Part shown: positions 2,539 to 29,930 of the stretch, in pieces
How positions within the stretch are numbered: position 1 is the stretch's first letter
Layout: the number at the start of each line of letters is the position of its first letter
IMG/VR virus record: IMGVR_UViG_3300028423_000521
Span: 1-43,570 of that record
Reading direction: 5' to 3' (one strand)
DNA from: a virus
DNA length: 43,570 nucleotides
Notes under the pieces: model-generated
What the model saw: the letters and a program-made list of their open reading frames with translations, nothing else
The model's database searches: none
Told to the model about the DNA's origin: nothing
Translations under genes and position numbers: made by a program

Positions 2539-3381
2539 ATGAACCTCGATCTTGAAAACCTCGCCCGCCTTACTCGTGACGAACGTGCGGCCGCAAAAAC
2601 CCTCGGTCCCGCAGAAGCCCGCTACCTCGTGGACACCTATTACGCTTTCCAGCGCTTCCGCATCACGGCGGGCAACCAGATCAACGCGGCCGAAAAGCAG
2701 GGCGAGCCTCACTCAACCCTAGCATGGGCTTTCTCTCAATTCGACCTTCTCGAACAGCAGGTCAAGGGAGCCCTGTCCAAATACGTTGAGTCTCACACCA
2801 TCGGCCAGTGGGCCATCTCACAGAAAGGAGTCGGTCCAGTTATCACGGCAGGCTTCCTGTCTCGCCTTCAAATCCGGCCGACCGTAGGCCACTGGTGGAA
2901 TTTCTGTGGCCTTAACCCTGACATAGAATGGAAGAAAGGGCAGGTTCGGCCGTGGAACGCAAGTCTCAAGCGCCTTTGCTGGCTTCTTGGCGAGTCCTTC
3001 ACCAAAGTCTCAGGCCGCGATGATGCCTTTTACGGCCAACTCTATCGCCAACGTAAAGAGCAGGAAGTTCGCAAGAACCTCGCGGGCGACTTCGCTGAGC
3101 AGGCCGCTAAGCAACTCGCCAGTAAGAATTACGGCAAACAGACCGAGGCTTATAAGGCGATGATTGAGGGCCGCCTCCCTGACGCCCAAATCCATCTGCG
3201 GGCTCAACGCTATGCGGTCAAGTTCTTCCTCTCTCACCTCCACCACGTCTGGCATGTCGTGGAACTCAACGAGCGGCCACCGAAGCCTTTCGTAATCGAG
3301 CATCTTGGCCACGCTCATTACGTCGAACCGCCTAACTTCGACACGAAGGAGTATCTAGCCATTAATCGTGATAGTAACTAA
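2539..3381 (+). CDS. IS110-type transposase C-terminal-like (helix-hairpin-helix) protein, no RuvC domain
   Basis: A 280-residue protein starting 11 bp after the helicase, with AAGGAGAAACCCG as ribosome-binding site. Residues about 95-180 (QKGVGPVITAGFLSRLQ, then FCGLNPD..., then ASLKRLCWLLGESF) resemble the C-terminal domain of IS110/IS116/IS902 transposases: a helix-hairpin-helix GVGP motif, a GL-P turn and a final helix. The N-terminal DEDD/RuvC-like domain of real IS110 enzymes is absent. The SG serine expected after GLxP reads WKKG here, so recombinase activity is unlikely and DNA binding is more plausible. The rest is basic and helical. The stop codon lies inside the first unit of the 36-bp array, suggesting the array is its target (inference). 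The family match is by eye. Confidence 0.6.
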   Translation: MNLDLENLARLTRDERAAAKTLGPAEARYLVDTYYAFQRFRITAGNQINAAEKQGEPHSTLAWAFSQFDLLEQQVKGALSKYVESHTIGQWAISQKGVGPVITAGFLSRLQIRPTVGHWWNFCGLNPDIEWKKGQVRPWNASLKRLCWLLGESFTKVSGRDDAFYGQLYRQRKEQEVRKNLAGDFAEQAAKQLASKNYGKQTEAYKAMIEGRLPDAQIHLRAQRYAVKFFLSHLHHVWHVVELNERPPKPFVIEHLGHAHYVEPPNFDTKEYLAINRDSN

Positions 3382-4159
3382 AGAAGTGAGCGAGCCACCG
3401 CTGAAGATAGTAACTAAAGAAGTGAGCGAGCCCGTCACGCCGACTGTAACTTTTTCCGCGAGCGAGCCGAGAATGGAAACTGTAACTCGATTGCTGAGCG
3501 AGCCAATACCACGGACAGTAACCTAACTTGGGAGCGAGTCGCTCGATATGACTGTAACAAAGAAGAAGAGCGATCCTACTACATCGAGTGTATCGTGCAT
3601 GACGAGAGAGCCAGAATTACTGATCGAAACAAAGCATCAGAGCGAGCCATCGTATCCGAAAGTAACAAACCATCAGAGCGAGTCATTGTGGCCGAAAGTA
3701 ACTAATCGGAAGAGCGAGCCATCGTGACCTAGAGTGCCGTAAGCAGAGAGTGAGCCACCCCTAAAGCTAGTATCTATCCCCCTGAGCGAGCCGTCTGATA
3801 AGACAGTAACTCATGATGAGAGCGAGCCGAATGGTCTGACAGTAACATACCAAGCGAGCGAGCCAAGCATATCGAATGTAACGAAGAGAATGAGCGAGCC
3901 ACAGAGTAAGACTGTAACAAAGTTGATGAGCGAGCCATGACTGTTGACAGTAATAAAAGGAGCGAGCGAGCCGCGTAAAGCAAAAGTATCGTGTCAAGTG
4001 AGCGAGCCGGTTGTCCAGAATGAAACTCAAAAGTGGAGCGAGTCACCGAACAGGACAGTATCAATGCGAACTAGCGAGCCACCTCCTTGTATAGTAACTA
4101 ATCGTGGGAGCGAGCCGAATATGTTGAGTGTAACGAAGTTTGTGAGCGCCTATGGCGCT
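3374..4159. repeat. Array of about 22 units with exact 36-bp period
   Basis: AGCGAGCC (or a 1-2 base variant) begins at 3389, 3425, 3461, 3497, 3533, 3569, 3605, 3641, 3677, 3713, 3749, 3785, 3821, 3857, 3893, 3929, 3965, 4001, 4037, 4073 and 4109. Every step is exactly 36 bp, and a diverged copy begins at 4145. A second core, GTAAC (variants GTATC, GAAAC), starts 21 bp after each first core; an extra copy at 3374 opens the array. The 13 bp and 10 bp between cores are almost unrelated from unit to unit. This is not a CRISPR: the conserved part is 13 bp in two blocks and no cas genes are present. Four in-frame stops (3524, 3725, 3740, 3938) argue against a repeat protein. The 21-bp core spacing is two helical turns, which suits a protein-binding array. 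Confidence 0.9.
4145..4159. repeat. Inverted repeat closing the 36-bp array
   Basis: AGCGCC-TAT-GGCGCT is a perfect 6-bp inverted repeat at exactly the place where the next AGCGAGCC core should fall. It is followed by ACCATTAAAAG rather than a T tract, so it is not a typical terminator. It may be a boundary site for whatever binds the array, or a leftover of the mechanism that built it. Confidence 0.6.
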
Positions 4160-4186: not shown

Positions 4187-4342
4187 ATGAAACAAGACAA
4201 AAGACTGCCCGAGGACCAAGCAGACTATCACTCCCGGCCAGACGAGGGCGCTGGCGTTATCGCCGCCCTCGCCGTAGCCATAACTATCGTCCTCTGCCTC
4301 GTGGCCCTCTTCACCATCTACTACCTACAAAACGGGGGTTGA
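4187..4342 (+). CDS. Small single-pass membrane protein, 51 aa
   Basis: Translation gives a 51-residue protein: a charged N-terminus (MKQDKRLPEDQADYHSRP) and then one long hydrophobic helix (about residues 23-46, IAALAVAITIVLCLVALF) ending YYLQNGG. No cleavable signal is evident, so it is probably an N-in inner-membrane anchor. Its TGA stop overlaps the -35 hexamer of the next promoter (4339-4344). The upstream ribosome-binding site is weak. Function unknown; small membrane proteins in phage early regions often act on the host, but nothing here shows that. Confidence 0.6.
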   Translation: MKQDKRLPEDQADYHSRPDEGAGVIAALAVAITIVLCLVALFTIYYLQNGG

Positions 4343-8743: not shown

Positions 8744-9073
8744 ATGCCCACTTTTACAGATAAGTTTGATGAGCAGCTAACCGGCCTCGTCAACAAAGAA
8801 CGTCAAGCAGCCTATGGCCACCCGCTATACCACTTTCAGCGCACGGCCAACATGAAAAAGGAGTTGCGCCATTGCGAGGATGCAGAACTCCGCCATGTTC
8901 TTGAGATGATCGCGGACAAGATGGCCCGTCTCTGTGAGACACCAGACCATTTTGACTCATGGATCGACATTGCGGGCTACGCTCGAACAGCCATGATGGT
9001 CATGGATGAGAGAAAAGGAAATGAAGATGCAAAGTATAAAACCTCAGTAACCCTCGGAGGAGACCTTATATGA
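8744..9073 (+). CDS. DUF6378-like phage protein, 109 aa
   Basis: The sequence NKERQAAYGHPLYHF..., then MIADKMARLCE..., then DSWIDIAGYARTAMMV follows the pattern of a small phage family annotated DUF6378 (all-helical, distantly like MazG-type nucleotide pyrophosphohydrolases). Conserved-looking acidic residues and the DIAGY helix are present. Nucleotide-related function is a guess from the fold. GAGGAAG is the ribosome-binding site; the gene overlaps the ParB-methyltransferase start by 4 bp. Confidence 0.6.
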   Translation: MPTFTDKFDEQLTGLVNKERQAAYGHPLYHFQRTANMKKELRHCEDAELRHVLEMIADKMARLCETPDHFDSWIDIAGYARTAMMVMDERKGNEDAKYKTSVTLGGDLI

Positions 9074-10374
9074 CGAGCGGAAACTTCTCTTACATCCCGC
9101 TTGACTCCATCACGGTCAACAGGGACAACAGGCAAAGAAAAGAAATCGACCCAACTAAACTGGAAGAATTGGCCGAGTCAATCCGACAGCGTGGCCTCAT
9201 CAATCCAATCACAGTCACTCGCGATCTTGTCCTAATCGCGGGCGAGCGCCGCTATGAGGCCCACAAACTCTTGGGCTTCGATCAAATCGCTGTGCAGTTT
9301 ACGGAAAACCTGACTGATGAGGAAATGCACCTTATCGAGCTTGAAGAAAACGTCAAACGCCTCGACCTTTCGTGGCAAGATGAGGTAGATGCAGTCTCCC
9401 TCTACCATGAAATCAAGTCGGGGACTGAGGAAGATTGGTCTCAAGAACGGACCGCCGAGGCCCTTGGCATGAGTCAGTCTAACGTGGCCAAGCAACTTCT
9501 GGTAAAGAAGGCCATGGATGAGGGTGTTGAGGACGTTATCTCCTCACCGAAACTTACGACCGCAGCCAATTACGCGCAGCGGGCAATGGAACGCAAGAAA
9601 ACATCAGCCTTGCGTAATCTTCGTCAGGAGAGTCTCCCTTCGTCGAGTGAGTCCCCAACTATCACCGAAGAAGAGGTTCTTAGCATCCAGCCCGCCGTGA
9701 AACGATACGCTGATATTCAGGAGGCCAATTTCAACGTGTGGTCAAAGGAGGTCTACGAGGTTCCTTTCAACTTCATTCACTGTGACTTCCCCTACGGCAT
9801 CAGCGCGGGCGACACTAAGGGCCAGTCGGGGGCCAAGCTTTACGGGGGCTACGCTGACAAGCCTGAAATCTATTGGGAGTTGATAGACAAATTCTTGGAG
9901 CGGCAAGATAACTTTGTAGCCCCTTCGGCCCATATGATGTTCTGGTTCAGCATGGACTTCTATCAAGAAACTAAGCACAGGCTTGAAGAGGCGGGCTGGA
10001 AAGTTAATCCATTCCCCCTTATCTGGTTTAAGACCGACAACACGGGCATCTTGCCTGATGCAAAACGTGGCCCCCGTCGCATCTACGAGACTGCCTTCCT
10101 CTGCACGAGGGGCGACCGCAAAATCGTCAAGGCCAAAGGAAACTGTGTCGGAACCACTGTCACCAAAGACTACCATATGAGTGAAAAGTCCACAAAGATG
10201 CTAGAGCATTTCTTCACGATGTTTGTGGACGAGACTACAGTAATGCTTGACCCTACCTGCGGCTCAGGTAATGCAGTAAAAGTGGCCGAGGAAATGGGGG
10301 CCGACTGGTCTCTGGGCCTCGAATTAAATCCCGAATATGTGGCACTCGCCCGCCAAAATCTGGAGTTAGACTAA
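9070..10374 (+). CDS. ParB/Srx-domain - DNA methyltransferase fusion
   Basis: A 434-residue fusion. Residues 1-110 form a ParB/Srx-type domain (YIPLDSITVNRDNRQRKEID, INPITVTRD, LIAGERRYEAHKLLG). Residues about 125-160 hold a KorB-like helix-turn-helix (RTAEALGMSQSNVAKQL). From about residue 225 there is an adenine/N4-cytosine methyltransferase with catalytic CDFPYG (motif IV, Phe in place of the first Pro of DPPY) followed near the C-terminus by the SAM-binding motif DPTCGSGNAV. That order is typical of the beta class. It probably modifies phage DNA against host restriction, guided by the ParB/HTH part. Target sequence unknown. Confidence 0.85.
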   Translation: MTSGNFSYIPLDSITVNRDNRQRKEIDPTKLEELAESIRQRGLINPITVTRDLVLIAGERRYEAHKLLGFDQIAVQFTENLTDEEMHLIELEENVKRLDLSWQDEVDAVSLYHEIKSGTEEDWSQERTAEALGMSQSNVAKQLLVKKAMDEGVEDVISSPKLTTAANYAQRAMERKKTSALRNLRQESLPSSSESPTITEEEVLSIQPAVKRYADIQEANFNVWSKEVYEVPFNFIHCDFPYGISAGDTKGQSGAKLYGGYADKPEIYWELIDKFLERQDNFVAPSAHMMFWFSMDFYQETKHRLEEAGWKVNPFPLIWFKTDNTGILPDAKRGPRRIYETAFLCTRGDRKIVKAKGNCVGTTVTKDYHMSEKSTKMLEHFFTMFVDETTVMLDPTCGSGNAVKVAEEMGADWSLGLELNPEYVALARQNLELD

Positions 10375-10668: not shown

Positions 10669-10890
10669 GTGGCTTGGTTCTGCTACGAAATCTCATTCTC
10701 GGGCCAGCTTCAGCCCCGAGTCTACAATGAAAAACCGGACGAAAGAACGGCTGAGGGCCGCAAGCGGTCTATAGTCAAAGACTCTCTTTACGAGATAGAC
10801 AGTGGCCTTTCTACGGAACAGGCCGAGATAGCCTTTCTCCTAAGCCGAGGTGGCAAGTTCACTTACAAGAAAGAGAGGCAAGATGCATAA
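10669..10890 (+). CDS. Hypothetical protein, 73 aa (GTG start)
   Basis: The longer frame opens at ATG 10642, but that lies at the inferred transcription start and has no ribosome-binding site. GTG 10669 has GGGAGG 6 bp upstream and is preferred. The protein (VAWFCYEISFSGQLQPRVYNEKP...) has an N-terminal strand pair, a basic middle and a C-terminal helix with EQAEIAFLLSRGG. No family recognised. Its end overlaps the next start by 8 bp. Confidence 0.6.
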   Translation: MAWFCYEISFSGQLQPRVYNEKPDERTAEGRKRSIVKDSLYEIDSGLSTEQAEIAFLLSRGGKFTYKKERQDA

Positions 10891-11908
10891 GCCGATTATG
10901 ATTGTTGGCGAGGCTTGGGGCGAGCAAGAAGAGCGGGTAGGTAAGCCCTTTCAAGGGCCATCCGGCTCTGTCCTCCGAGGCATCCTGCGTCAGACCGGCG
11001 TGGACATAAACGAATGCTACCTCACGAACGTATTCAATCGTCGCCCGACTAATAATAAGATAGAGGCATTCTGTGGCCCCAAGGCCGAAGGCATACCTAA
11101 CTATCGTCCGATCAAGCAAGGCAGCTACGTGCGAAAGGAATTTCAGCCTGAGTTAGACCGTCTGTTTGAGGAGATCGAACGGACTCGTCCTAACATAATC
11201 GTAGCCGTGGGCAACACTCCTTTATGGGCCCTGTGCAAAAAGGTGGGCATTAAGAAATATCGCGGGGCTCCCATGCTTACCCATCCTGACGTTCTGGGCG
11301 GAAAGTATAAGGTAATTCCTACATGGCATCCGGCCGCAATCCTCCGTCAATGGGAAATGCGCATCGTAGCCGTGGCCGATTTCCATAAGGTCAGGCACGA
11401 AAGCAGCTTCTCTGAACTCCATCGCCCGTCGCACCTAATTTACCTTGAGCCCTCTATCGGGGACATTGAGGCTTTCTATAATCAATTCCTCAAAGACGAG
11501 CCCTTCGTGTCGGCCGACATTGAAACTAAGGAACGGACGATAACTGAGATCGGCTTTTCGACGGCCAGCGGAGATCGCTGCATTGTGATCCCTTTCTGGA
11601 GCCGGGCCGCAGAAGATGGAAATTACTGGTCAACGGCCGAGGAAGAATGTGAGGCATGGAATTGGGTCAGGCATATCCTAGCCGAAAAGAAAGTCGTCGG
11701 CCAAAACTTCTCCTACGACATGAACTATCTTTGGCGCACAGTCCACATACCTTGCCCACATTTTCTGGGCGACACAATGGTTCTCCACCACTCACTCCAG
11801 CCCGAGTTAGAAAAAGGCTTAGGCTTTTTGGGCTCAATCTACACAAACGAGCCCTCATGGAAATTCATGCGCACCGATCACTCAACACTTAAGCAGGGAG
11901 ACGACTGA
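10883..11908 (+). CDS. Uracil-DNA glycosylase fused to the N-terminal part of a DnaQ-like 3'-5' exonuclease
   Basis: A 341-residue protein. Residues 1-175 match family 4/5-like uracil-DNA glycosylases: GEAWGEQEERVGKPFQGPSG, then IIVAVGNTPLW, then a C-terminal TWHPAAI His motif. From about residue 200 the exonuclease domain of a family A polymerase begins: VSADIETK (Exo I, Asp-x-Glu) and VGQNFSYDMNYLW (Exo II), then a segment ending KGLGFLGSIYTNEPSWK. It stops before Exo III. Exo III (YNGLD) is in the polymerase gene at 12449, beyond two inserted genes, so this is the first half of a split polymerase. ATG 10883 is preferred to GTG 10850 because GAGAGGCAAG precedes it. Confidence 0.85.
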   Translation: MHKPIMIVGEAWGEQEERVGKPFQGPSGSVLRGILRQTGVDINECYLTNVFNRRPTNNKIEAFCGPKAEGIPNYRPIKQGSYVRKEFQPELDRLFEEIERTRPNIIVAVGNTPLWALCKKVGIKKYRGAPMLTHPDVLGGKYKVIPTWHPAAILRQWEMRIVAVADFHKVRHESSFSELHRPSHLIYLEPSIGDIEAFYNQFLKDEPFVSADIETKERTITEIGFSTASGDRCIVIPFWSRAAEDGNYWSTAEEECEAWNWVRHILAEKKVVGQNFSYDMNYLWRTVHIPCPHFLGDTMVLHHSLQPELEKGLGFLGSIYTNEPSWKFMRTDHSTLKQGDD

Positions 11909-12138: not shown

Positions 12139-12452
12139 TCTACGTAGCCAGCCCATACTCCCACCCCGACGCAGCCGTTCGTCATGTTCGCTACGAGAGA
12201 ACTCTTTACTACTGCGCCGAGCAGATGCGTAAGGGCCTTGTAGTATTCTCGCCCATCGTCTACGGCCACCAGTTTGCCCTTCTCGGCCTATCTCAAACTG
12301 ACCACGTTTGGTGGCAGGACTTTAACGAAAGAATGCTTCTTTCCGCAGAGTCTATCCATATCTTCATGATCGCGGGCTGGAAAGAGTCGGAGGGCATAGC
12401 CCATGAGATAGACTTTGCTCAGCGGCACGGCATTGAGGTAAAATACGTATGA
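12135..12452 (+). CDS. DUF1937 / nucleoside deoxyribosyltransferase-like protein
   Basis: The pattern IYVASPYSH (N-terminal strand and loop), VVFSPIVYGH, ERMLLSAESIHIFMIAGWKESEGIAHEID is that of DUF1937, related in fold to nucleoside 2-deoxyribosyltransferases and DUF4406. The SPYSHPD loop and the GWKESEG...E segment correspond to the nucleotide-binding and catalytic side of that fold. It may act on nucleotides or base-modified precursors; activity is unproven. Overlaps the polymerase start by 4 bp. Confidence 0.7.
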   Translation: MIYVASPYSHPDAAVRHVRYERTLYYCAEQMRKGLVVFSPIVYGHQFALLGLSQTDHVWWQDFNERMLLSAESIHIFMIAGWKESEGIAHEIDFAQRHGIEVKYV

Positions 12453-14026
12453 AAATCTTCGACACCGCTAATCTTGATGAAAAGCTTATGTCCAAGCTTT
12501 CGGCCGATGAGGCTGCCCACATCTACAACGGGCTAGATTGCTGTGTCACGGCCGAGATATACAGCGAGCTTATGACACAGCTTGAGACCGAGCCCGACAA
12601 TGTTAAGGAAACCTATACAACTGCCTTAGCCAAACTGGCCCCCATCCTAGAAATGTCAATGCGAGGCACTCTCATCGACGAGGAGGCCCGTCAGAAGTCA
12701 ATCAAACTCTTAGAGAAAGACCTTACAGAACTCGACGCCAAATTCCAGCGCATCATGCGTGAAATCTTTGGTGGCGAGTTAAATTGGCGGTCGCCTGTGC
12801 AGCTTAAGAACCTCTTCTATTCCATGCTCGGCCTTAAGGAGGTTAAGAAACGAAACCAGAACGGTATCTTTGCTGCAACCACCAATCGTGAGGCACTGGA
12901 ATTTCTGGCGGGCCGCTATTTCTACGCCCGCCCGCTGGCCAATATGATCCTAGCCATGCGTGATTTGCACAAACAACTCGGCTTCCTCAAAACCGAGATC
13001 GACAAAGATCAGCGTATCCGCACATCCTATAACACCTGTGGCACGAACACCGGCCGCCTTTCCTCTTCCATGTCAGACTACGGCACAGGGACCAACTTGC
13101 AAAACGTCAATCGCAAACTACGTTACCCATTCGTGGCCGACCCCGGAATGTATTTGGTCAACGTTGATCTGGAGCAGGCAGATGGCCGCAACGTGGGCGC
13201 AATCTGCTATAACCTTTTCTACGACAGCCACGGCCCTGAGTTCTCGGGCGCTTACCTCGACGCCTGTGAGTCGGGCGACCTCCACACTACCGTTTGTAAA
13301 ATGACGTGGCCGGAGCTAGACTGGCCTGAGGATGAGAACGAATGGAAAAAGTTTTGCGACAGCATCCTAGCACATGGGCAGGACAGCTATCGCCAACTTG
13401 CAAAGAAGCTTGGCCACGGCACAAACTATTACGGAACGCCTCGGACAATGGCCCGTCATGCTCACGTGCCAACTAAGATCATCGAGGAATTTCAGAACAG
13501 ATACTTCAAACAGTTTGCCTGTGTCCCTGAGTGGCACAAAAGCGTCATATCGGACATACAGACTACTGGCACAATCACCACCCTGTTCGGCCGCCGGCGA
13601 ATGTTTTTCGGGCGAGGCAACGATGCCTCTACTCACCGTAAGGCCATCGCCTATGCTCCGCAGTCCATGACAGGTGAGCAAATCGACCGTGGCCTGTTAC
13701 AGGTCTGGCGGGCCTACCCGCAGGTGCAACTACTGAACCAAGTCCACGACTCAATCCTATTCCAACTCCCGTTCAGCGAAGCAGAAGAACTGATACCAGA
13801 AGTCCTGAAAACAATGGAAGTAAGCCTCGATCTTCGGGGCGGCCGAAAATTCACCGTTCCCCTCGAGGCCCAAGTGGGCTGGAACTGGAGCAAGGCGGAC
13901 AAAACAAACGAGTATGGACTGAAAGCATGGACAGGCAAAGAAGATCGCTCAAGGCCAAACCCGACAAAGAGGATAAAGGACTTCTTTCCGAAAGACCGGA
14001 TTTTATCCAAGCGTTTGAGGAAATGA
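12449..14026 (+). CDS. Family A DNA polymerase, C-terminal part of a split enzyme
   Basis: A 525-residue family A polymerase beginning in the middle of the 3'-5' exonuclease domain: residues about 26-34 hold Exo III (YNGLDCCVT). Motif A is VNVDLEQADGR (Asp240), motif B RQLAKKLGHGTNYYG, motif C NQVHDSILF (His433, Asp434). At the motif A steric-gate position, where most family A enzymes have Glu, this one has Asp245, and Glu242 replaces the usual Ser. Exo I and Exo II are on the separate protein encoded at 10883-11908, so proofreading needs the two chains to assemble. The 3' end overlaps the helicase gene by 100 bp. Confidence 0.9.
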   Translation: MKIFDTANLDEKLMSKLSADEAAHIYNGLDCCVTAEIYSELMTQLETEPDNVKETYTTALAKLAPILEMSMRGTLIDEEARQKSIKLLEKDLTELDAKFQRIMREIFGGELNWRSPVQLKNLFYSMLGLKEVKKRNQNGIFAATTNREALEFLAGRYFYARPLANMILAMRDLHKQLGFLKTEIDKDQRIRTSYNTCGTNTGRLSSSMSDYGTGTNLQNVNRKLRYPFVADPGMYLVNVDLEQADGRNVGAICYNLFYDSHGPEFSGAYLDACESGDLHTTVCKMTWPELDWPEDENEWKKFCDSILAHGQDSYRQLAKKLGHGTNYYGTPRTMARHAHVPTKIIEEFQNRYFKQFACVPEWHKSVISDIQTTGTITTLFGRRRMFFGRGNDASTHRKAIAYAPQSMTGEQIDRGLLQVWRAYPQVQLLNQVHDSILFQLPFSEAEELIPEVLKTMEVSLDLRGGRKFTVPLEAQVGWNWSKADKTNEYGLKAWTGKEDRSRPNPTKRIKDFFPKDRILSKRLRK

Positions 14027-28130: not shown

Positions 28131-29930
28131 TTAATTACGACCATACTGGTTTTTGCCAGTAATGTCAAGAGAAGATGCATTACGACCAGTCCCAACTAAG
28201 ACCGAATTTTGCCTTGCACCCGCGTGCTCAACCCTTCGCACCGAGGCGTCATCTCCAAAGACCAAAGGAGGAAATGTGGCAAGTGTGTAAGACGTTAGGG
28301 TTATTAGGATAATTGACTGTTCAGTAACCGCGGGCGCCAGCGGAGTCAGAGTATAGCCCGCGGTAGGGACGGCAATTATCTGAGCGGTGGTAATTGCGGG
28401 TGCTGGATTGGTTTGTGTAAAGCTGGTGGCCGGAACTTCTAATATGAGGTTTTCAGCCAACGCAGGGGTGGGCGCAGTAAGCGTGTAAGTAGAAAGTGGA
28501 ACTTCTATTGAGTCGGCCGCGATAAGTGTAGGTGTCGGGGTCGTGAGAGAATAGCTGGTCTCAGGGACGGCTATCGAGTCGGCCGTCACGAGCGTCGGGG
28601 CAAGGACGGTGAGGGTGTATGAGGTTACCGAGACCGCGTAAGTTATTTGCTCCGTGAGGGCGGGAATAGGAACGGTAGTGGTAAAGGCGGTAAGTGGGAC
28701 CGAAAGGGCTAGATTTTCAGTCAGGCTCGGCGGCAAGTCAGTAAGCACGTAAGAGGTAAGCGGGACCTCAAGTGTCTCAGCGGCCGCTAGGCTGGGAGCC
28801 GGAAGGCTGAGGGTGTAGGTGGTAAGAGGGACACTGAGCGTAAGCGCGGCCACAATCTCCGGTGCAGGCAGACTCTGTGTGTATGTGGTAACGCCAACTG
28901 AGATAAGTTCGTTGGCCAGCAGAGTCGGAGCCGAGGCGGATAGGGTGTATGCGGTTGCAGGAACGGCCAGTGCAATTTCGGCCAGAATGTCCGGTGTATT
29001 GTTTGTCAGTGAGTATGCGGTTGCCGAGACGGCCAGCAGCTCGTTGACGGGCAGGGATGGAGCAGGGTTGGTAAGGGTGTATGAAGTTGTGGGAACTTCT
29101 ATAGCTGCAGCAGCGCCCGGCGTCTCGACCCGGATTATGATTATTCCATCGCCGCCGTCAGAAAATACATCAGCAGGTGCGCCACCTCCGCCACCACCAC
29201 CTAGGCCATCCGTGCCGTCCTGTTGAGTTGTGCCGCCTGTTCCGCCTCCGCCGAGGCCCCCCGAACTGACTCCGTCAGTAGAACCACCACCGCCGCCGCC
29301 CGCATAATAGGTTGCCGTGCCGTCAATAGAAGACTGCCTGCCATCGCCTCCGTCACCTCCCGGCCCAGAAGACGAGAAAGGTCTATCATCCCCCGGCTCC
29401 CCTGCACCACCGCCACCTGCGCCGTGACGGCCACCATCTCCCAAATCCTCTCCGCTTCCTCCCGCAAAACCGAAGCCACTATCACCAGTCCCGCTCAGCG
29501 CGCTTGCTCCGGTGCCACCATAGCGACCACCACCACCTGACCCACCAATTTCTCCGTTATGGTCAACGTTACCACCACCACCACCATGGCCACCGCCGGG
29601 AGCAATCAGGCCGTTAAACGAGCTATCGCCTGCTCTTGGAATGGAACCAGCATCATTACCTACACCACCGGCGCCTACCGTGACAGTCAGTGTTGACGCC
29701 GTTACAGACGTTGTTCCTTCGAGAAAACGTCCACCTCCGCCACCACCACCGCGCCTGTCTCCACCTGCGCCACCACCGCCAATTATGAGATAATCTACAT
29801 CCCCGGCGCCGTCGAAGGTAATCGAGCCGCCGTTCGGGAACTCGTAGACGTCATAGTCCGTGCCCCCGATATTGGTGGTCGTCTTGGTAGCCCCGGTTCC
29901 CGAGTATGTGCTGACGGTCGCGGCGACCAC
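28131..29930 (-). CDS. Glycine-rich fibre-like protein with about 13 22-residue repeats
   Basis: A 599-residue protein with three parts: an N-terminal strand region (TVSTYSGTGATKTTTN..., SITFDGAGDVDYLIIGGGG), a very Gly-rich part to about residue 270, and about 13 repeats of 22 residues (about 279-558; consensus VP-T-YTLT-PAP-L). The C-terminal tail ends GKNQYGRN. Gly-rich and repeat parts resemble tail fibre or capsid fibre proteins. The gene lies between capsid and connector genes, unusual for a tail fibre, so a capsid-exposed fibre is possible. The 66-bp DNA repeat unit could change copy number by recombination. Confidence 0.75.
   Translation of the reverse strand: MVAATVSTYSGTGATKTTTNIGGTDYDVYEFPNGGSITFDGAGDVDYLIIGGGGAGGDRRGGGGGGGRFLEGTTSVTASTLTVTVGAGGVGNDAGSIPRAGDSSFNGLIAPGGGHGGGGGNVDHNGEIGGSGGGGRYGGTGASALSGTGDSGFGFAGGSGEDLGDGGRHGAGGGGAGEPGDDRPFSSSGPGGDGGDGRQSSIDGTATYYAGGGGGGSTDGVSSGGLGGGGTGGTTQQDGTDGLGGGGGGGAPADVFSDGGDGIIIIRVETPGAAAAIEVPTTSYTLTNPAPSLPVNELLAVSATAYSLTNNTPDILAEIALAVPATAYTLSASAPTLLANELISVGVTTYTQSLPAPEIVAALTLSVPLTTYTLSLPAPSLAAAETLEVPLTSYVLTDLPPSLTENLALSVPLTAFTTTVPIPALTEQITYAVSVTSYTLTVLAPTLVTADSIAVPETSYSLTTPTPTLIAADSIEVPLSTYTLTAPTPALAENLILEVPATSFTQTNPAPAITTAQIIAVPTAGYTLTPLAPAVTEQSIILITLTSYTLATFPPLVFGDDASVRRVEHAGARQNSVLVGTGRNASSLDITGKNQYGRN

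What the first reader, a model, noticed from the sequence alone, without database searches (positions are those of the whole stretch)
2539..4159. IS110-C-terminal-like DNA-binding protein coupled to the array
The gene just upstream encodes a domain resembling the C-terminal helix-hairpin-helix domain of IS110 recombinases without their RuvC-like domain and apparently without the serine. Its last codons AGT AAC TAA form the first GTAAC core at 3374-3378, so gene and array overlap. This suggests a recombinase domain turned into an array-binding protein, making a new two-part system. IS110 enzymes also use a noncoding RNA, so an RNA from the array region should be considered.
Basis: partly seen in the sequence, partly recalled or inferred. 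Interest (0 to 1): 0.78.

Follow-up and report, generated by a model that had tools for sequence, protein, structure and literature searches.

The report
Phage TIGR-TasA RNA-guided DNA-binding system
This phage carries a known type of RNA-guided DNA-targeting system called TIGR-Tas, in its form without a DNA-cutting domain: one protein gene fused at its end to an array of 22 short paired guides, whose natural targets nobody knows yet.

Summary
Gene 2539-3381 encodes a 280-aa protein related to the RNA-binding half of IS110 recombinases. It lacks the RuvC (DEDD) domain and the catalytic serine, and its last codons run into an array of 36-nt units (22 in register, no indel). The interpretation, a new pairing of a recombinase domain with a DNA array it binds, is not right. 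This is a TIGR-TasA locus, a system described in 2025 (PMC12045711). The protein passes NCBIfam's TIGR-Tas model (184.8 bits, cut-off 100). Its AlphaFold model (pLDDT 92.6) matches solved TasH and TasR (Z 19.8 and 18.1), above IS621 (12.9). The array has the TIGR layout: 9-nt edge GAGCGAGCC, 9-nt spacer A, 9-nt loop GANWGTAAC, 9-nt spacer B. At least 21 of 37 related viral contigs carry a 35-39-nt alternating-repeat array beside the gene. By homology the array RNA is cut into 36-nt guides that direct a TasA dimer to ~18-bp DNA sites, each spacer pairing with one strand; the site is bound, not cut. No natural target was found. One by-product: viruses with identical TasA keep the array ends but differ inside.

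The parts
2539..3381 (+). tasA: 280-aa solo Nop-domain (coiled coil + C-terminal RNA-binding domain) TIGR-associated protein, no nuclease domain
   Evidence: NCBIfam NF052498 TIGR_Tas_endo 184.8 bits, cut-off 100, E 2e-54; phmmer to 9mty (TIGR-TasR) E 1e-12; AF2 model pLDDT 92.6 matching TasH Z 19.8, TasR Z 18.1, ISCro4 13.0, IS621 12.9
3352..4150 (+). TIGR dual-repeat array: 22 predicted tigRNA units of 36 nt (edge GAGCGAGCC / spacer A 9 nt / loop GANWGTAAC / spacer B 9 nt)
   Evidence: exact 36-nt period, column conservation; tigRNA table; arrays with the same edge beside homologous genes
3352..3360 (+). 5'-truncated first edge repeat (TATCTAGCC, 6 of 9 identical to GAGCGAGCC), inside the tasA coding sequence
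   Evidence: register of the array; in L122-L124 the tasA stop codon lies in the equivalent truncated edge GATAAGCCG, and in Microcystis phage Mvi-JY20 the tas stop also lies in a truncated edge
3361..3378 (+). spacer A1 (ATTAATCGT) and first loop repeat (GATAGTAAC), overlapping the last codons of tasA; stop codon 3379-3381 lies in spacer B1
4145..4159 (+). array end: truncated edge GAGCG running into hairpin AGCGCC-TAT-GGCGCT (terminator-like, but no U run)
   Evidence: fold: centroid -9.8 kcal/mol, not unusual against shuffles, z -0.28; the terminal GAGCGCC is shared with L122-L124
1079..2527 (+). UvrD-like helicase gene directly upstream (stop 11 nt before the tasA start); probably same transcript, not a conserved partner
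   Evidence: Pfam UvrD-helicase 3.6e-19; no homologue near the other tas loci

Best explanation
The locus is a TIGR-TasA system. Shown here: a solo Nop-domain Tas protein directly followed by a dual-repeat TIGR array. Inferred from characterised relatives: the tasA-array transcript is cut inside the edge repeats into 36-nt tigRNAs by a host RNase with help from TasA. One tigRNA is held by a TasA dimer, the edge repeat by one protomer and the loop repeat by the other. Spacers A and B pair with opposite strands of an ~18-bp target, which is unwound and bent. Without a nuclease, TasA would stay bound and block transcription or replication of the target, most likely a competing mobile element or a host gene. 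This last step is the least certain.
For: NCBIfam TIGR-Tas model passed at E 2e-54. Profile and fold match solved TasR and TasH better than any other chain. The array matches the published definition: two alternating 8-12-nt repeats and 9-nt spacers, 36-nt unit, truncated edge repeats at both ends, beside the tas gene. Homologues include the published SpTasH phage (Salicola phage CGphi29) and Acidianus tailed spindle virus, with an annotated repeat region next to the gene. At least 21 of 37 IMG/VR homologues carry a 35-39-nt alternating-repeat array beside the gene. FpTasA, a nuclease-less member, was shown to bind 36-nt RNAs from its array (PMC12045711).
Against: No RNA or binding data for this locus. 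The loop repeat ends in AAC+N rather than ACC+R as in the close relatives L122-L124, so the usual symmetry of the box C motifs between edge and loop is weaker here. Several loop repeats are degenerate (GTGCC, GAAAC, GTATC). The terminal hairpin is weak. No target was identified in the phage's own genome, and scans of IMG/VR with three spacer pairs were inconclusive.
Confidence: 0.94

Rival explanations
1. The repeats act as DNA: iterons or a centromere-like array bound by the upstream protein for replication or partition.
Against: The protein is a Nop-domain Tas protein whose solved relatives bind the array RNA. The unit architecture (two alternating 9-nt repeats and two 9-nt variable segments) is that of TIGR arrays and recurs with the same or other repeat sequences in relatives. 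Iterons do not need two hypervariable 9-nt segments.
Confidence: 0.02
2. A TIGR array in decay: the system was inherited but many units no longer give functional guides.
For: Loop repeats with substitutions (t7, t8, t11, t12, t18-t20); weak end hairpin.
Against: 22 units keep exact 36-nt spacing with no indel, the edge repeat is nearly invariant, and the gene is intact with all family-invariant residues.
Confidence: 0.1
3. The array encodes a 12-residue repeat protein (frame ...VTxxxSEPxxx...).
For: 36 is 12 codons; one frame reads as a repeating VT...SEP motif over long stretches.
Against: That frame has several internal stop codons, and third codon positions of the conserved codons (GTA, AGC, GAG) are as conserved as first and second ones. 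Relatives use 35, 37 and 39-nt units, two of which break the frame.
Confidence: 0.005
4. An IS110-type RNA-guided recombinase or its relic.
For: Profile hit to IS621 and ISCro4 (E 4e-6) and fold similarity Z 13.
Against: No DEDD/RuvC domain, no catalytic serine, much closer to Tas proteins; no evidence of an element end or bridge RNA.
Confidence: 0.005

Closest known systems
TIGR-TasA (solo Nop Tas with dual-repeat array; Faure et al. 2025, PMC12045711)
   Same: Nop-domain protein without nuclease; adjacent array of edge/spacer A/loop/spacer B units, 9-nt spacers, 36-nt unit; phage-borne.
   Different: 22 units rather than the most common 5-15; loop repeat GANWGTAAC lacks the CC of the edge repeat; first unit lies inside the tasA coding end.
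TIGR-TasH (Salicola phage CGphi29; PDB 9vzx, 9w04, 21kl)
   Same: Nop domain over the whole length (Z 19.8, 229 aligned), TIGR array system in a phage.
   Different: TasH has an N-terminal HNH nuclease; the window protein has only about 26 residues there.
TIGR-TasR (PDB 9mty)
   Same: Nop domain (E 1e-12 single sequence, 4e-47 profile; Z 18.1).
   Different: TasR has an N-terminal RuvC nuclease of about 110 residues, absent here.
IS110 family recombinases (IS621, ISCro4)
   Same: Related coiled-coil/RNA-binding C-terminal fold (Z 13); RNA-guided.
   Different: No DEDD domain, no catalytic serine, no mobile-element structure; guides come from an array, not a bridge RNA.
CRISPR arrays
   Same: Regular array with variable segments next to an effector gene.
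   Different: Two alternating 9-nt repeats and two 9-nt spacers per 36-nt unit; no cas genes recognised beside it.

Membership tests
TIGR-Tas | Nop-domain Tas protein | tested here: met
   NF052498 184.8 bits, cut-off 100; AF2 model matches TasH/TasR with Z 18-20
TIGR-Tas | Adjacent array of two alternating 8-12-nt repeats with ~9-nt spacers | tested here: met
   9+9+9+9 = 36 nt, 22 units, no indel
TIGR-Tas | Array bounded by truncated edge repeats and followed by a terminator | tested here: inconclusive
   Truncated edges at 3352 and 4144; the hairpin is present but weak and without a U run
[quoted passage not shown]
   Both repeats start with GA and end with C, but the edge ends CC and the loop ends AC; in most relatives both end CC
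TIGR-Tas | Array RNA processed to 36-nt tigRNAs bound by Tas | not testable with these tools
   needs small-RNA sequencing
TIGR-Tas | tigRNA-guided binding of both strands of a dsDNA target | not testable with these tools
   needs binding assays; no own-genome target with 2 or fewer mismatches; viral scans with 3 spacer pairs inconclusive
TasA subtype | No N-terminal HNH or RuvC nuclease | tested here: met
   Only ~26 residues before the NF052498 region (27-238) and no Pfam nuclease
IS110 recombinase | N-terminal DEDD/RuvC-like domain | tested here: not met
   shared region starts near residue 21, IS621 equivalent 125
IS110 recombinase | Catalytic serine in the C-terminal domain | tested here: not met
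   no serine at the equivalent of IS621 Ser241; invariant W131 beside it
CRISPR-Cas | Single 25-36-nt repeat type with similar-sized spacers | tested here: not met
   two alternating 9-nt repeats and 9-nt spacers

The most novel reading that the evidence does not exclude
The phage uses a non-cutting TasA with 22 guides to silence other viruses (or host genes) by binding, and such arrays change by gain and loss of units in their interior while both end units are kept. This would be a way of array evolution different from leader-end CRISPR adaptation. Support is thin: one set of three related viruses (two with identical TasA) and a few near-duplicate units.
Probability: 0.25. Interest if true: 0.65.

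Novelty: new member of a known kind. Interest (0 to 1): 0.42.

Why it matters
TIGR-Tas is a recently described RNA-guided family. The role of the nuclease-less TasA form, its natural targets and how its arrays grow are stated open questions (PMC12045711). This locus adds a clean 22-guide TasA array and a set of related phage loci with the same edge repeat. The closest three relatives show how arrays differ between near-identical systems, which is a direct handle on array evolution.

Tried and rejected
Array as coding repeat: stops, non-triplet units in relatives. Same array sequence elsewhere: 117 single-match contigs, none an array. Close relatives by one protein: none, solved by a small alignment. 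Self-targets, both array phases: no hit with 2 or fewer mismatches, counts as in shuffles. Targets in IMG/VR for 3 spacer pairs: 2, 0 and 14 contigs; the 14 fall into about five unrelated contexts, including a portal-like motif EWSAWYSG in L181/L183; reverse-order control 0; with about 1.4 chance hits expected per pattern (my estimate) this is not decisive. Cross-targets between TIGR loci held here: as in shuffles. Array growth by tandem unit duplication: only a weak excess of similarity between neighbours (p 0.018, uncorrected). An apparent preference for pairs five units apart did not hold (p 0.79). Conserved neighbour genes: none. Rfam: nothing. Single-sequence AF2 model: useless, pLDDT 39. 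In the VIA list no Nop5/Prp31 row appeared; that absence is not evidence.

Full report
WHAT WAS CHECKED. The window is a 43,570-base virus record, a tailed phage by its terminase, major head protein and DNA polymerase. From 3372 there are 22 consecutive 36-nt units without a single indel. Conserved blocks are GTAAC (with GA and one A/T base before it) and GAGCGAGCC, separated by two 9-nt variable segments. Lag-36 identity of 0.63 exceeds anything in shuffled sequence (0.42).

WHAT THE PROTEIN IS. No Pfam family matches, and PHROG calls it 'transposase'. A single-sequence search of the PDB finds one chain: 9mty, the 331-aa TIGR-TasR, E 1e-12, in the part after its nuclease. A 30-sequence alignment of viral relatives turned into a profile finds TasR (4e-47), TasH (1.2e-34), and, far weaker, the IS110 recombinases ISCro4 and IS621 (4e-6). 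NCBIfam has a curated TIGR-Tas model, NF052498. The window protein scores 184.8 bits against a cut-off of 100. The AlphaFold2 model from that alignment has mean pLDDT 92.6. Its best structural matches are TasH (Z 19.8, 229 aligned, rmsd 4.4), TasR (Z 18.1, 191, 2.3), ISCro4 (13.0, 177, 3.5) and IS621 (12.9, 176, 3.2); unrelated helical proteins begin at 9.8, and Foldseek agrees. The model has helices only. No nuclease domain precedes the shared region, and the IS110 serine is missing. This is TasA. NCBI's family name 'endonuclease' does not fit this member.

WHAT THE ARRAY IS. The published definition of a TIGR array (PMC12045711) is two alternating 8-12-nt repeats (edge, loop) with mostly 9-nt spacers, truncated edges at both ends, next to a tas gene; bound RNAs are 36 nt. 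Here edge, spacer A, loop and spacer B are 9 nt each. I assign GAGCGAGCC as edge and GANWGTAAC as loop because the array begins and ends in truncated copies of the former: TATCTAGCC at 3352-3360 and GAGCG+CC at 4144-4150, the latter shared with relatives L122-L124. The assignment is an inference. It gives 22 tigRNAs, the first lying in the last codons of tasA. The terminal hairpin at 4145-4159 is present but weak.

RELATIVES. Microcystis phage Mvi-JY20 has a homologue followed by an ATGCGAGCC/ACGAAACCC array and a clear terminator. Gordonia phage Morrissey has six inverted repeats around its homologue, each with exactly 30 nt between the arms, and Arthrobacter phage Talia1610 has two with 31-33 nt; these look like the published stem-loop type. 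Of 37 non-redundant IMG/VR homologues, at least 21 have a clear alternating-repeat array of period 35-39 nt beside the gene; several use the identical edge GAGCGAGCC. Some distant relatives showed no such periodicity (L143, L151-L155, L157, L158, L168); they may carry stem-loop arrays or none. In the tree the window protein groups with L122-L124 (support 100/97). Relatives also occur in bacterial genome assemblies, among them Acidobacteriota and Halomonas. No gene next to the window tasA was found near the other tas loci, so gene plus array behaves as a self-contained module.

ARRAY CHANGE. L122 and L123 encode identical TasA. Their arrays share the first units and the last ones but differ in between, with 7 and 16 full edge repeats. 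In L124 one tigRNA occurs twice, and the 9-mer GTGTAAGTC serves once as spacer A and once as spacer B. In the window, two adjacent units are clearly similar (68% over the variable columns) and the first two share one spacer. This points to interior gain and loss of units, but the pooled statistic is weak.

TARGETS. From the published cut geometry I derive the target as spacer A followed by the reverse complement of spacer B, gap 0-2. No own-genome site has 2 or fewer mismatches, and counts equal those of shuffled spacers. Three IMG/VR scans gave 2, 0 and 14 contigs. The 14 fall into about five unrelated contexts, one a portal-like motif; the reversed order gave none. I do not claim a target.

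MECHANISM. Shown: protein family, fold, lack of nuclease, array anatomy, co-occurrence. Inferred from FpTasA, TasR and TasH: processing into 36-nt tigRNAs, dimer binding, tandem two-strand recognition, DNA bending. Speculative: blocking of competing elements or regulation.

VERDICT. The claim of a new system is not: it is a new member of TIGR-TasA.

Noticed in passing
L122 4792-5080, L123 4779-5390, L124 4781-5180: Viruses with identical (L122, L123) or near-identical (L124) TasA have arrays that differ inside while L122 and L123 share the end units; L124 repeats one tigRNA and uses one 9-mer as both spacer A and spacer B.
   Followed up: partly
window 10868-11908 and 12449-14026: Uracil-DNA glycosylase domain apparently fused to a DnaQ-like 3'-5' exonuclease domain (weak Pfam hit), close upstream of a family A DNA polymerase for which no exonuclease domain was reported.
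   Followed up: no
window 9070-10374: ParB_N domain fused to an N6/N4 DNA methylase, 5.7 kb from tasA; not the published tasParB arrangement, which is operonic.
   Followed up: no
L173 2100-3151 (Mycobacterium phage Scowl gp70): A protein annotated DNA-binding or 'transposase' in many Mycobacterium phages is a Tas relative, with inverted repeats upstream that may be a stem-loop TIGR array.
   Followed up: partly
L181 1403-1420, L183 7288-7305: Exact 18-nt match to the predicted target of window tigRNA 14 in a gene with a portal-like motif EWSAWYSG; could be chance.
   Followed up: partly
window 1008, 4339, 4561: Three TTGACA-type sites in the early region; only the one at 4339 was scored as promoter-like in the stretch scanned.
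   Followed up: no
window 28720-29480: Periodic stretch (lags 45-66 nt) in a large structural gene with glycine-rich and repeated sequence.
   Followed up: no
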